NCBI GenBank assembly: GCA_019637335.1
Contig: JAHBVV010000013.1
Coordinates: 62,001-126,000 of the forward strand
Direction: 5' to 3'
DNA length: 64,000 nucleotides
Source: Candidatus Hydrogenedentota bacterium
GTDB taxonomy: Bacteria > Hydrogenedentota > Hydrogenedentia > Hydrogenedentales > JAEUWI01
Within the stretch, counting starts at the first letter, position 1, and the number at the start of each line of letters is the position of its first letter. The notes under the pieces were generated by a model that worked only from the letters and a program-made list of their open reading frames with translations, did not search any database and was not told the origin of the DNA. The translations under genes were made by a program, and so were the position numbers. Below, in pieces: positions 43,148 to 55,332 of the stretch.

Positions 43148-43242
43148 AAAATCCGGGTAATCCTCTGGGTTGGGCGCGATTCGCGCATGGTTTGTCCAAG
43201 TATAAGAACGCCCCGGCGGGATTGCAACGCGCCCCGCCGATA

Positions 43243-43448
43243 CAGGGCAATCGCATTTAAACTTCCAACTCGATCCGAGCGCCACATGAACCACCTTCAA
43301 TCTTATAAAGGGCGCGTGTTGGAGCGCTGGCATCCCTGCCGGCACAGATGCCGGCGCTCCAAAACGCTCACTATCGTTGATTCAAGGTTCCAAATCGACT
43401 CAAGTTTACGCCCATATACCGAGATCGAGTTTAAATGCGATTGCCCTG
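43243..43448 (+). mobile_element. 206-bp MITE-like element, copy A
   Basis: Begins CAGGGCAATCGCATTTAAAC and ends with its exact reverse complement (43429-43448). CCCGCCGAT occurs just before (43233-43241) and just after (43449-43457), a 9-of-10 target duplication. An internal imperfect inverted repeat (GTTGGAGCGCTGGCATC / GATGCCGGCGCTCCAA) makes a long hairpin. No gene is inside. It is the same length as copy B and collinear with it, and lies in the 354-bp divergent gap between the DUF1080 protein and the glycosyltransferase-like gene. Confidence 0.85.
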
Positions 43449-43501
43449 CCCGCCGATTCCGCGCTCGAATTCGCGCCCCAACCCTGTGCTACCGTATCGC
43501 C

Positions 43502-45421
43502 ATGCTCGACCGACTCCTCCAGTGGATCCCGCCCGATCGCCACGCGGACTACCTGCGCCTGCTGGGCCACGTCCCGCCGTGGGCAAAGAGGATTGCCCTG
43601 CTGGGCGATCCCTGCGCGGCGCTCGGCTACCTCCTCAGGAAGCGCGGCGGCTGCGTCACGGGCTTCATCGACGACCCGAAGGCCGCGGCCATCGCCGGTG
43701 AAATTCTGGATGCCGTCCGTCCTCTGTCCCCCGCTTCGGGCGCCGCACAAGAAGAACCCTTCGACGCACTGCTGCTCTGTGGCCTCGAAACCAGCGCGGA
43801 TGCCGTCTTCGCCGCTCTGTCCATGCTGGCGCCCGGGCTCGGCCCGAATACCTGGATCTTCGCGCTCCACGGAAATCCCGCGCTGGGCGGGCGCCCCGGG
43901 AACACCGAGACCCTGGCCAGCGATGTGACGGAACGGCTCGCGAACGCGGGTTTTCCGGCCATTCGCCGCTACCCCGACGGGCCGCCGGACGCGGGAATGC
44001 TCCATCTCGCGGCCCCCGCGGGCTACGATCCGGTTGCCCACGCGCGCAGCCTCCGCAATCAGGGCCTCTTCGAGTACGCGTATACCGTCCTGGAGCTTGT
44101 CCCCCCGCCCCCCCACGCGCGTCGGCCCGCCGCCCTGGAAAAACTTGCCATACTCGCCGCCTGGATCCACCACGATCGCGGGCGCGATGTGTCCCACCTC
44201 ATCAGCCGCGCGCTGGACGCCTTCTACCTGCTGACCAACGAATCGCCGCGCGATCCAGATGCGTATCTCGCCATGGCCGACTGCTGGGCAAGTGCGGGCG
44301 CTCCCGATATGGCGCGCCGGCTGCTTCAGTCGATCGGATACGCCGCGCCCGGCTCGGAAATCGACGCCCGGCTCGCGGCCCTGCCGGAGGTGACTCTTCC
44401 CCGCGAACATATATCGGATCCGCCCGAATGGATGCCCGGCCGCCCCGCGCGGGTACTGTTCCTGCTGCATCCCCGCCCCCATTTCGGCCTGGACGCCCTG
44501 TTCGATGGCCTCTGTGATTGCCTGGGCGATGAAAATGTGGTCGATTTTCCGTGGAAACCCACCCTGCACGGCCAGGAATCCGAGGCCCACCGGGATTACC
44601 CCTGCCGTTACCAGCGGCGCGGCGCGCCGGAGGGCGTTACGGCGCTGGTGGAGGCCTTGCGGGCGGGACATTTCGACGCGATCCTCTACGGCGATGTCGA
44701 AGGGGACTTGCCCCCTGACCATATTCGGGCCCTGTTGGCGGCGCGCGGGGATTGCCCGGTGTTTCTCATGGACGCGCTCGATCAGCCCTGTAATTTCCGC
44801 GATCTCGTCCGGAACCGCCTCGGCCTGGAACGTTTTCACGGCTATTTCAAGCGCGAGATGCTCCACAACGTCGACTACGGCCCCAACGCCTGGCCACTGC
44901 CCTTCGCCTACGCCACCCCCACCGGCGACTTTCGCCCGATCACGGAGCGCCCGCGCCCCTTTTTCTGGGCGGGCCACCGGCAATTCGGCCAGCGGCGGCT
45001 CTACCTCGAAGCCCTGGAAGCGCGCTACGGCTGGGATCTCAACGAGCGCTTCGACCAGGCCGAATACCAGCGTCGCCTGCGGGAAAGCCGGATCGGGCTC
45101 AATTGCTTCGGCATGGGGTTCGACACCGTCCGCTACTGGGAGTTGCCGGCGCATGGCTGCCTCCTGCTCAGCGACCGCCTGCCCATACAGATCCCGCACA
45201 ATTTCGTGGACGGGCGCCACGCCGTCTTTTTCGACACCCTGCCGGAACTAATCGAAAAGATCGACCACTACCTGGCGCACCCGGCGGAGGCCGAAGCCAT
45301 CGCGGCGGCGGGGCGGGCGCATTTCCTTGAACGCCATACCAACGCCGCCCGCGCCCGCCAGGCCCTGGGCTGGATGTCCAGGGCAATCACATCGAAACGG
45401 GATCGCGGCATTGGGGCGTAA
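43502..45421 (+). CDS. CgeB-like glycosyltransferase-family protein
   Basis: A 639-residue cytoplasmic protein. I start it at the ATG at 43502 (MLDRLLQWIPPDRHADYLRL); the longer frame upstream translates the MITE and is rejected. An N-terminal methyltransferase-like region (about 25-170: KRIALLGDPCAALGYLLR) is followed by a helical TPR-like region (about 180-300). A C-terminal glycosyltransferase-1-type domain (300-630) contains GHFDAILYGDVEGDLPPDHI, QRRLRESRIGLNCFGMGFDT and YWELPAHGCLLLSDRLPI, as in CgeB/spore-maturation-type glycosyltransferases. The final 14 residues (AITSKRDRGIGA region) and the stop codon are encoded by decayed MITE copy C. Confidence 0.75.
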   Translation: MLDRLLQWIPPDRHADYLRLLGHVPPWAKRIALLGDPCAALGYLLRKRGGCVTGFIDDPKAAAIAGEILDAVRPLSPASGAAQEEPFDALLLCGLETSADAVFAALSMLAPGLGPNTWIFALHGNPALGGRPGNTETLASDVTERLANAGFPAIRRYPDGPPDAGMLHLAAPAGYDPVAHARSLRNQGLFEYAYTVLELVPPPPHARRPAALEKLAILAAWIHHDRGRDVSHLISRALDAFYLLTNESPRDPDAYLAMADCWASAGAPDMARRLLQSIGYAAPGSEIDARLAALPEVTLPREHISDPPEWMPGRPARVLFLLHPRPHFGLDALFDGLCDCLGDENVVDFPWKPTLHGQESEAHRDYPCRYQRRGAPEGVTALVEALRAGHFDAILYGDVEGDLPPDHIRALLAARGDCPVFLMDALDQPCNFRDLVRNRLGLERFHGYFKREMLHNVDYGPNAWPLPFAYATPTGDFRPITERPRPFFWAGHRQFGQRRLYLEALEARYGWDLNERFDQAEYQRRLRESRIGLNCFGMGFDTVRYWELPAHGCLLLSDRLPIQIPHNFVDGRHAVFFDTLPELIEKIDHYLAHPAEAEAIAAAGRAHFLERHTNAARARQALGWMSRAITSKRDRGIGA

Positions 45422-45606
45422 ACGTGGGTCAATTTGGAGCCTTGAATTAATGAAAGTGAGCGTGTTGGAGCGCCGGCATCTCGGCCGGCAAAGTCACGGA
45501 TTCGCCGCAGGCGAAATGCCAGCGCGCCAACACGGCCCCTTTTGACGTTGCGGGTGGTTCGTATGGCGCTTGGCTCGTACCGAAACGTTATCTGCGATTG
45601 CCCTCG
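45379..45606 (-). mobile_element. Decayed MITE-like element, copy C (inverted)
   Basis: Aligns with the reverse complement of copies A and B: left end CAGGGCAATCACATCGAAAC, shared TTTGGAGCCTTGAATTAATG, AAAGTGAGCGTGTTGGAGCG, then GGTGGTTCGTATGGCGCTTG, and right end GCGATTGCCCT. The central hairpin is interrupted by about 28 extra bases and the right end has CTCG for CTG. Possible decayed target duplication GCTGGATGTC / GCTGAATTTT (7 of 10). It overlaps the last 43 bases of the glycosyltransferase-like gene. Confidence 0.72.
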
Positions 45607-52080: not shown

Positions 52081-53097
52081 TCACTCTCCTGACCGGGGTG
52101 GCCCGGTGAAGTCCCGCAGGGCGATGCGCAACGCCAGCACATTGTCCGGCGCGGCGTTGAGGCGCATCGCGTCTTTTTCCGTCGTTATAATGAGTCCTGG
52201 ACGTTTCAGGACTTCCCCCGGAATGACGGCATGATCCGGGAAGGCGAAGGTCTCTTTCAAGGTGAAGCCCAGCGACGCGAGGGTCTGGTAAAAGGCCTCC
52301 GGATTGCCGATGGCCGCGATGGCGGTGACCGGTTCCGCGCAGGCGTTCTGCAGGGAAACGGGGGCGCCATCGGCGACGCGCCACAGGCCGTCGGGGGCGT
52401 GGATGGTTTCGCGCACAGGCGCGCCGGGGGCGTATTCCGCCAGGCGCGCGCGCAACCCGTTCAGGCCAATGGCCTGATCGCAGCGGGTCAATACAATCTC
52501 CGTCGCCCGTTTCAGCGCGTCCAGCGGTTCGCGGAGGATGCCGCGGGGGACGAGATAGCCATTGCCGAAGGGGTTCGTGGCGTCGATCAGGCAGATGTTG
52601 CGGTCCCGGGCAAGCTGCACGTGCTGGTAGGCGTCGTCCAATACGATGACGTCGCAACCGTGCTGTTTCATGGCGGCGCGCGCCCCGTCGGCGCGGCGAG
52701 CCGCTTTCACGAGAATGCATTCCGGCGCGTGGCAGCGGATCAGAGCCGGTTCGTCGCCCACCTGGCGCACGATATCGGCCCGCGGCATGTCGGGCAGAAC
52801 GACGAAGGGCTCTGGGACGCGATCGCTGCCGTAGCCCCGCGTGACGACCGCCACGCGATGGCCCGCCGCGATTTGCTGCTGGATGCATTCAATGACGGCG
52901 GGGGTCTTGCCTGTGCCGCCGGCCGTGATGTTGCCAAAACTGATGACGGTGGCGTCGATGCGCTCCGCGGGCTGGCGAAGGCGCCAGTGCATCCCGATGC
53001 GGGTTGCGGGCGTGGCGGCGCGGAGGAGCAGGTCCCAGAAGCGGGGGAGAGGCTCCCCCCGCCGAACGCGGGCGGCTATATCGTTGAAATGAGACAT
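52081..53097 (-). CDS. lpxK: Tetraacyldisaccharide 4'-kinase
   Basis: A 338-residue inner-membrane-associated kinase phosphorylating the lipid A precursor at the 4' position. The P-loop is GNITAGGTGKTP (55-66) and further hallmarks are VAVVTRGYGSD, QVGDEPALIRCHAPECILV, DVIVLDDAYQHVQLARDRNI and LVPRGILREPLDAL. An N-terminal helix would attach it to the membrane. Length is normal. The gene indicates that the organism makes lipid A. It is followed immediately by the ceramidase-like gene; other lpx genes are not in the window. Confidence 0.94.
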   Translation of the reverse strand: MSHFNDIAARVRRGEPLPRFWDLLLRAATPATRIGMHWRLRQPAERIDATVISFGNITAGGTGKTPAVIECIQQQIAAGHRVAVVTRGYGSDRVPEPFVVLPDMPRADIVRQVGDEPALIRCHAPECILVKAARRADGARAAMKQHGCDVIVLDDAYQHVQLARDRNICLIDATNPFGNGYLVPRGILREPLDALKRATEIVLTRCDQAIGLNGLRARLAEYAPGAPVRETIHAPDGLWRVADGAPVSLQNACAEPVTAIAAIGNPEAFYQTLASLGFTLKETFAFPDHAVIPGEVLKRPGLIITTEKDAMRLNAAPDNVLALRIALRDFTGPPRSGE

Positions 53098-53418: not shown

Positions 53419-53850
53419 TCAGGCTTCCACCTGCGCGCCCATGCGCGTCAATTCGTCGAGAAACTGGGACGCCATGGGGGAGTTTATACGGAATTTCGCG
53501 TGGCCCTGCCAACCCGGCCGCATGTCCTCATAGCGAAACGAGATCAGGAGGCGTCCTTCGCGGGGACAGGATACCTGCAAGCGCGACACCCGTGGGTCGT
53601 CGCGCGGGAGGTCAATCTGGGGCTTCCCATAACAACATAGCAGGATCCGCTGGCGCGTAATCGCAAGATAGCCCGCGAAGCTCCTGATCTTGTAGAGCGA
53701 GCACCGGCCCGGGATGCGAAGGTTTCGCTGCACGAGGTGGCCGCTGAAACCTTCGTCCGCAAGCACCATCCCTTCACGTTCCAATTCACTCCGGCGCGAA
53801 TCGGGAATACTGCCCGCGCTGAAAAGTCGATACAGGAGCGCTTTACCCAC
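53419..53850 (-). CDS. PH-like-fold cytosolic protein, unknown
   Basis: A 143-residue protein starting at the GTG at 53850, which has GGAGGG seven bases upstream; the longer reading frame lacks such a site. The middle (SLYKIRSFAGYLAITRQRIL, then LCCYGKPQIDLP) and end (FRYEDMRPGWQGHAKFRINS) look like the strands of a bacterial pleckstrin-homology-like (GRAM/bPH) fold, with a C-terminal helix ASQFLDELTRMGAQ. This is a resemblance, not a firm family assignment. It lies just upstream of MITE copy B and shares its strand with dprA. Confidence 0.65.
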   Translation of the reverse strand: MGKALLYRLFSAGSIPDSRRSELEREGMVLADEGFSGHLVQRNLRIPGRCSLYKIRSFAGYLAITRQRILLCCYGKPQIDLPRDDPRVSRLQVSCPREGRLLISFRYEDMRPGWQGHAKFRINSPMASQFLDELTRMGAQVEA

Positions 53851-53940
53851 GAATTGACCCTCCGCGGCGATGCCGGGGCATGCCGCTTCCCCCCGCTTCA
53901 TCTTACACCCAAACGGGCCAATACGGAAGCGGTATTATCG

Positions 53941-54146
53941 CAGGGCAATCGCATTTAAACTTCCTGTCCGAGCCGAGCGCCATATGAACCACCTGAAATG
54001 TTGAAAAGTGAGCGTGTTGGAGCGCCGGCATCTCTGCCGGCAAGGATGCCGGCGCTCCAACACGCTCACTTTCATTGATTCAAGGCTCCAAATCAACTCA
54101 AATTCACGCCCAAATGCCGCCATCGGGTTTAAATGCGATTGCCCTG
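53941..54146 (+). mobile_element. 206-bp MITE-like element, copy B
   Basis: The best-preserved copy. Terminal inverted repeats CAGGGCAATCGCATTTAAAC (53941-53960) and its exact complement (54127-54146) are perfect over 20 bases. GGTATTATCG flanks both sides exactly (53931-53940 and 54147-54156), a 10-base target duplication. The centre holds a perfect 25-base inverted repeat (54008-54032 and 54045-54069; 28 with flanking A/T pairs) around a 12-base loop. The right-hand target duplication contains the dprA stop codon (54151-54153). It has no gene and must be moved by a transposase encoded elsewhere. Confidence 0.9.
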
Positions 54147-54150
54147 GGTA

Positions 54151-55332
54151 TTATCGGGGTGCAAATCGTTTCCCGCTCAGCTGGCGGATCAGGCCCTTCA
54201 ATTCCAGCATGGTGAGTGAGGTAAGGGCTTCCGATACCGAGAGGCGCGCGGCGGCGGCGATTTCATCGACGAAGGAGCCATCCCGGTGCAGCACATCCAG
54301 TACCGCCTGTTCCACGGGCGTGATGTTCGGGCGGGGCGTGGGGGGCGCAGCGGTCGCTGCCGCGAACGGCTGGGGCGCGGCGGTGGTGGAGGCGGGCCGT
54401 GCGGGGACCGGCGCGCTTTCGGGCGTTTTTCGGGCCGCCGGGGCCTGGCGCGCGGACGCTTCCAGGTCGAGTTCCACGAGGATATCGTCCACGGTTTCGA
54501 CGAGCTTGGCGCCCTCGCGGATCAGGGCGTGGGGCCCGCGCGCGTTGTAACTGCCGGCCTCGCCGGGCACAGCAAAGACCTCGCGCCCCTGTTCTGCGGC
54601 GTTGCGCGCGGTTATCAGGGCGCCGCTTCCCACGGGGGCCTCGACCACGACGGTCCCCATGGACAGTCCGCTGATGATGCGGTTGCGGTAGGGGAAGTGC
54701 CCCTTGGAGGGTTTGACGCCCATCTCAAAACAGGAAACGACCGCGCCCCGCTGCACGATCCGGTGCATCAGCGCCGCGTTGGACGCCGGATAGACCACAT
54801 CCACGCCACAGCCCAGCACGGCAATCGTCCGTCCGCCCGCTTCCAGGGCGCCCTCGTGCGCGGCGGTGTCCGTGCCTTCCGCCATTCCGCTGACAACCGT
54901 AATGCCGCGCGCGGCGAGGTCGTAGGCCAGGGAGCGGGCCATGCGGGCGCCGTACGGGGTGGAGCGGCGGGTCCCGACAATCGCCACGGCGTGCCGGTCG
55001 GCCTCGACGAGATCTCCCCGTGCAAAGAGCACGAGCGGCGGGTCGTAGATTTCGGCGAGAAGCAGGGGGTAGGCCGTCTCGTCCATGGTGTACAAGGCCG
55101 CGCCGTATTCTTCCATGCGCGCGATCTGTCCGTCGACGTCCACGACATCGCGATAGGCATGAATGCGCTCGGCCAGTTTGGGCCCCACCACCTCGCGCAG
55201 GGACGCCTCGGAGGCCGCCAGGACATCCGCGGGCGCGCCGTAACGGGCGAGGAGGCGGATGAAGAGGGTAGTTCCGACCCCGGGGATCATCTTCAGGGCG
55301 AGCCACTGCCGCTGCTCGGGTGTGATTGCCAT
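54151..55332 (-). CDS. dprA: DNA-processing protein DprA
   Basis: A 393-residue protein that loads RecA on incoming single-stranded DNA during transformation. It has an N-terminal HhH/SAM-like region (ALKMIPGVGTTLFIRLLARY) and a Rossmann-like DprA core with VAIVGTRRSTPYGARMARSL, VVSGMAEGTDTAAHEGAL, TIAVLGCGVDVVYPASN, FPYRNRIISGLSMGTVVVEA, and REVFAVPGEAG. A proline/alanine linker (about 290-330) leads to a C-terminal winged helix (NITPVEQAVLDVLHRDGSFV, DEIAAAARLSVSEAL). The stop codon lies inside the target duplication of MITE copy B, so the element landed at the end of this gene without shortening it. Confidence 0.95.
   Translation of the reverse strand: MAITPEQRQWLALKMIPGVGTTLFIRLLARYGAPADVLAASEASLREVVGPKLAERIHAYRDVVDVDGQIARMEEYGAALYTMDETAYPLLLAEIYDPPLVLFARGDLVEADRHAVAIVGTRRSTPYGARMARSLAYDLAARGITVVSGMAEGTDTAAHEGALEAGGRTIAVLGCGVDVVYPASNAALMHRIVQRGAVVSCFEMGVKPSKGHFPYRNRIISGLSMGTVVVEAPVGSGALITARNAAEQGREVFAVPGEAGSYNARGPHALIREGAKLVETVDDILVELDLEASARQAPAARKTPESAPVPARPASTTAAPQPFAAATAAPPTPRPNITPVEQAVLDVLHRDGSFVDEIAAAARLSVSEALTSLTMLELKGLIRQLSGKRFAPR

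What the first reader, a model, noticed from the sequence alone, without database searches (positions are those of the whole stretch)
53941..54146. 206-bp non-coding transposable element with perfect 20-bp ends and 10-bp target duplication
The ends CAGGGCAATCGCATTTAAAC and its exact complement bound 206 bases flanked on both sides by GGTATTATCG. The inside carries a perfect 25-base inverted repeat around a 12-base loop. It contains no gene. This is the architecture of a MITE, and a second copy of the same length exists at 43243. I know of no named family with these ends. The RNA form would make a long hairpin, so it could also affect transcript ends or stability.
Basis: seen in the sequence. 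Interest (0 to 1): 0.72.

Follow-up and report, generated by a model that had tools for sequence, protein, structure and literature searches.

The report
Orphan ISAs1-type miniature transposon family
The 206-base element is one of at least about 80 copies of a gene-less 'hitch-hiking' transposon that uses the ends of a common bacterial jumping-gene family (ISAs1) whose enzyme is not found in this genome; it is a clear, mostly ordinary case of a known kind.

Summary
Observation confirmed; the MITE reading is right. The element at 53941-54146 (perfect 20-bp inverted ends, 10-bp duplication GGTATTATCG) belongs to a family with at least about 80 copies in this 7.16-Mb genome (82 forward, 77 reverse ends; 0 for the reversed control). 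Of 63 end-paired copies, 44 carry a 10-bp flanking repeat (at least 8/10 identical) against 1.1% of shuffled flanks. The family is assigned here: the ends CAGGGCAATCGCATTTAAAC are those of ISAs1-family insertion sequences. Full-length ISAs1 elements in relatives and named genomes have the same ends, a transposase matching NF033564 (about 410 bits, cut-off 70) and 10-bp duplications. No ISAs1 transposase is detectable in the window's own genome, and none of 59 relatives holds the MITE: an apparently orphaned, lineage-specific MITE, probably spread by a transposase since lost or missing from the assembly. The perfect hairpin is atypical: this copy has a 28-bp perfect stem, the family median is 9 bp, which looks like quasipalindrome correction. 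The insertion lies at the dprA stop codon, which falls in the duplicated target. Two more copies lie in the window (43243-43448; decayed 45379-45605). New member of a known kind.

The parts
53931..53940 (.). left copy of 10-bp target-site duplication GGTATTATCG
   Evidence: 10/10 identical
53941..54146 (-). 206-bp MITE with ISAs1-type ends (minus = orientation of the family consensus)
53941..53960 (+). terminal inverted repeat CAGGGCAATCGCATTTAAAC
54005..54032 (+). left arm of internal perfect 28-bp inverted repeat
   Evidence: element positions 65-92
54033..54044 (+). 12-base loop TCTGCCGGCAAG
54045..54072 (+). right arm of internal inverted repeat
54127..54146 (-). terminal inverted repeat, complement of the left end
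54147..54156 (.). right copy of the target-site duplication; contains the dprA stop codon TAA (54151-54153, minus strand)
43233..43242 (.). left target duplication of second copy (CCCGCCGATA)
43243..43448 (-). second 206-bp copy, perfect ends
43449..43458 (.). right target duplication of second copy (CCCGCCGATT)
45379..45605 (+). third, decayed copy (227 bp, ends with 3 and 5 mismatches, 82% to consensus)
54151..55332 (-). host gene dprA, ending inside the target duplication
   Evidence: TIGR00732, 253 bits, cut-off 191
53419..53901 (-). 160-aa ORF of unknown family, next gene downstream of the insertion
   Evidence: no match
52081..53097 (-). lpxK, which directly follows dprA in two genomes of the same order

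Best explanation
It is a non-autonomous miniature transposon (MITE) of the ISAs1 insertion-sequence group. Its two 20-bp ends are the sites an ISAs1-family DDE transposase would bind and cut (inferred). Insertion into a staggered cut duplicated 10 bp of target (duplication shown for 44 of 63 copies). A transposase acting in trans spread the family to at least about 80 places in this lineage (inferred). That transposase is not detectable in the assembly (shown; real loss against an assembly gap is not settled). The internal hairpin is not needed as a perfect structure, because most copies have only an imperfect one. In this copy it was probably perfected by quasipalindrome correction, with one arm recopied from the other (inferred).
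For: Copies. TSD of exactly 10 bp: (mean flank identity 0.76 at length 10, against 0.38 at 9 and 11 and 0.29 in control). Same ends on full-length ISAs1 elements: L131 (1327 bp, same family of bacteria) and L132 (1540 bp), transposases NF033564 at 412 and 409 bits and PF13808 + PF01609. Named-genome elements with exact 10-bp TSD and a homologous transposase: L192, L240, L249. Loci fetched by the transposase profile alone also show CAGGGC...CGCAT ends, two of them with exact 10-bp TSDs (L289 CGCGAAGGGC, L291 GGGGTTCTAA). No ISAs1 transposase in own genome. MITE absent from 59 relatives. In two genomes of the same order dprA is followed directly by lpxK with no element. Insertions avoid long open frames. 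Hairpin statistics.
Against: No sequence similarity between the MITE interior and any ISAs1 element beyond the ends was found (one search gave no match in G005 or G041), so derivation by internal deletion of a particular IS is not shown. The autonomous partner itself was not found; the assembly is a draft (55 contigs, 96% complete), so it could lie in a gap. Mobility was not observed.
Confidence: 0.94

Rival explanations
1. A dispersed non-mobile palindromic repeat (REP/ERIC-like or a structured RNA) that happens to have inverted ends, kept because its RNA hairpin controls transcript ends or stability.
For: Very stable fold, z about -11; insertions mostly outside long frames; the hairpin arm also occurs in non-MITE repeats.
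Against: Sharp 10-bp target duplications; ends identical to ISAs1 elements; hairpin imperfect in most copies, median perfect stem 9 bp; no terminator-like site; Rfam matches are only sub-threshold, mostly eukaryotic microRNA hairpins.
Confidence: 0.04
2. A MITE driven by another DDE family with similar ends (for example an IS4-group element with about 10-bp duplications).
For: The genome has six decayed or intact PF01609 transposase matches.
Against: None of the six has these ends as its own; one decayed element is nested inside a copy of the MITE. The transposases found between paired ends of this type in other genomes are homologous to the ISAs1 transposase.
Confidence: 0.02

Closest known systems
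ISAs1 insertion-sequence family (NF033564; H-repeat type)
   Same: Same terminal repeats (up to 19-20 of 20 identical), same 10-bp target duplication, in full-length elements of 1.2-1.6 kb
   Different: The window element is 206 bp and carries no gene; its interior is unrelated to any ISAs1 element seen here
Bacterial MITEs trans-mobilised by ISs, e.g. MITEPye1 of Paracoccus yeei (IS1182 type, PMC11578231)
   Same: Short, gene-less, IS-type ends and direct repeats, intergenic bias, folds into a long stem-loop
   Different: ISAs1-type ends; at least about 80 copies instead of 1-3 per chromosome; no autonomous partner detected in the genome
Other ISAs1-ended mini-elements seen here in genomes labelled Mariprofundaceae, Desulfobacterales, Chloroflexi, Saprospiraceae and others (e.g. 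L177 228 bp, L180 147 bp, L226 209 bp, L229 172 bp)
   Same: Identical ends and 10-bp duplications, no transposase inside
   Different: Other lengths; probably arose independently (interiors not compared one by one)

Membership tests
MITE | short, no transposase gene | tested here: met
   206/228 bp; no transposase frame inside
MITE | terminal inverted repeats and target-site duplications | tested here: met
MITE | multiple dispersed copies and orthologous sites without it | tested here: met
   at least about 80 copies; absent from 59 relatives; dprA-lpxK adjacent without it in G007/G008. Empty site within the same species not testable.
ISAs1-type ends | same terminal sequence as elements encoding an ISAs1 transposase | tested here: met
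ISAs1-type ends | target duplication of 10 bp as in full-length elements | tested here: met
ISAs1 insertion sequence (autonomous) | encodes ISAs1 transposase | tested here: not met
   no such frame in the element, none in the genome
ISAs1-derived MITE | mobilised in trans by an ISAs1 transposase | not testable with these tools
   needs a transposition or binding assay
REP/RAYT palindromes | short palindrome without long terminal repeats or target duplications | tested here: not met
   terminal repeats and duplications present; a RAYT gene was not searched for

The most novel reading that the evidence does not exclude
ISAs1-ended mini-elements are a widespread, repeatedly arising and little-described class across bacterial phyla, and in this lineage one of them has outlived its transposase while its internal quasipalindrome is repeatedly remodelled (several 22-bp losses, arm homogenisation in the window copy), which would make the family a natural record of hairpin-templated mutation.
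Probability: 0.4. Interest if true: 0.42.

Novelty: new member of a known kind. Interest (0 to 1): 0.3.

Why it matters
It assigns an unnamed dispersed repeat to a specific transposase family by an end/transposase/duplication match. It shows that ISAs1-type ends with 10-bp duplications recur on gene-less elements in several phyla, and it gives a set of at least about 80 copies in one genome in which hairpin remodelling can be followed. For annotation it explains gene-free hairpins next to genes such as dprA.

Tried and rejected
Looked for an autonomous element in the own genome by paired ends at longer spacing. The longer pairs read in full were MITE copies with nested inserts, not a transposase belonging to the ends: 543 bp (L046/L099) and L084 (2066 bp), which holds a decayed IS of another family; the 397-, 460- and 566-bp pairs are too short for a transposase gene and were not dissected. 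The end list is cut at 100 places, so a few ends with 2 mismatches were not inspected. Searched own genome with PF13808, NF033564 and an ISAs1 protein: nothing. PF01609 hits in the genome were examined for the ends: none carry them as their own. A direct empty-site search with joined flanks gave no match across the junction in congeners, probably because flanks are too divergent; the dprA end in G007/G008 served instead. Rfam gave only sub-threshold hairpins. No terminator or promoter consensus. Literature searches for ISAs1 with MITE found no dedicated report of this class in the held open-access library, which is not proof of absence; ISfinder could not be queried. The window's host could not be named; records of its own genome may be left out of the named collection.

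Full report
Observation. The 206-bp element at 53941-54146 is as described: perfect 20-bp ends and GGTATTATCG on both sides. The internal repeat is a perfect 28-bp stem around a 12-base loop, longer than the 25 bp reported. A second copy (43243-43448) and a third, decayed one (45379-45605) lie in the window.

Genome-wide family. A search with the window copy gave 82 matching pieces, about 40 of them distinct elements; one with a 228-bp copy gave 40 (the tool scores only 40 candidates), many of them different places. The end pattern with at most 2 mismatches occurs 82 times forward and 77 reverse in 7.16 Mb, with none for the reversed control, so there are at least about 80 elements. I collected 63 distinct end-paired copies: mostly 228 bp (35) or 206 bp (10). 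The two classes differ by a 22-bp block in the hairpin. The classes are scattered over the tree (12 changes, as many as for shuffled labels; at least 3 forced by well-supported branches), so the 22-bp difference arose or was exchanged repeatedly. Copies are a median 95.6% identical to the consensus.

Transposition signature. Comparing the two flanks over candidate lengths, mean identity is 0.76 at exactly 10 bp, 0.38 at 9 and 11 bp, and about 0.28 elsewhere and in shuffled flanks. 44 of 63 copies match in at least 8 of 10 positions against 1.1% of controls. Insertion points lie in long open frames less often than random window positions (37% against 70% with a frame of at least 250 codons); this is a rough measure.

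Family assignment. In relatives, full-length elements share the ends: L131 (1327 bp, same bacterial family, ends 19/20) and L132 (1540 bp, 18/20), each with one transposase gene matching NF033564 'ISAs1 family transposase' at 412 and 409 bits (cut-off 70) and PF13808 + PF01609. In named genomes the exact 19-base end occurs in several phyla. Elements there with a transposase homologous to that of L131 and exact 10-bp duplications are L192 (1314 bp), L240 (1230 bp) and L249 (1223 bp). As an unbiased check, loci fetched by the transposase profile alone also mostly end in CAGGGC...CGCAT..TAA or close variants, and L289 and L291 have exact 10-bp duplications. A congener (G002) carries such an element with more divergent ends (14/20 and 17/20).

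Orphan status. PF13808, NF033564 and a full ISAs1 protein find no transposase in the window's own genome (best E 0.33), although the same profiles ring in relatives and controls. None of the 59 relatives holds the MITE; the only two matches were 24-28-base fragments within the hairpin region. Caveat: the assembly is in 55 contigs, and repeats are what such assemblies lose.

Insertion at dprA. The insertion lies at the very end of dprA (TIGR00732): the stop codon TAA is within the duplicated 10 bp, so the gene is intact. In two genomes of the same order dprA is directly followed by lpxK with no element (lpxK in those two recognised from its sequence, in the window by TIGR00682). In the window the MITE and a 160-aa ORF of unknown family lie between them.

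Hairpin. The perfect 28-bp stem is unique to this copy: the family median is 9 bp and the next longest 21 bp. At the consensus mismatches (T:C, A:G, C:A in the consensus orientation) the window copy has the Watson-Crick partner of the first arm, i.e. the other arm was changed to match at several positions. This fits quasipalindrome correction by template switching (inference). No T-run or terminator-like site follows, so a role in transcript ends is unsupported. The hairpin arm also occurs outside recognisable MITE copies: 8 of 30 fetched hairpin loci lack the ends.

Verdict. A well-supported MITE family with ISAs1-type ends, lineage-specific and apparently orphaned; a new member of a known kind.

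Noticed in passing
   Followed up: yes
L046 977-1519, L088 428-970 (G000 C3 and C4): 543-bp copies of the MITE; L046 was read and has a nested insert of roughly 315 bp with its own hairpin, an altered left end (CACGTGCAATCG) and 16 identical flanking bases.
   Followed up: partly
L084 374-2439 (G000 C28): MITE copy containing a nested decayed insertion sequence of another family (PF01609, stop inside); sister copies seem to lie in L082, L083 and L087.
   Followed up: partly
L169-L173 (G000:C2:196591-198886): Cluster of spaced repeats that contain the 23-base hairpin arm GGAGCGCCGGCATCCCTGCCGGC without MITE ends; the arm seems to be shared between different repeat families.
   Followed up: partly
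L105, L112, L142, L128 (same order); L177, L180, L188, L200, L226, L229 (other phyla): Other gene-less mini-elements with the same ISAs1-type ends and 9-10 of 10 matching duplications, of different lengths: ISAs1-ended MITEs seem to have arisen many times.
   Followed up: partly
window 53419-53901: 160-aa ORF without Pfam or NCBIfam match lying between dprA and lpxK, which are adjacent in G007 and G008.
   Followed up: partly
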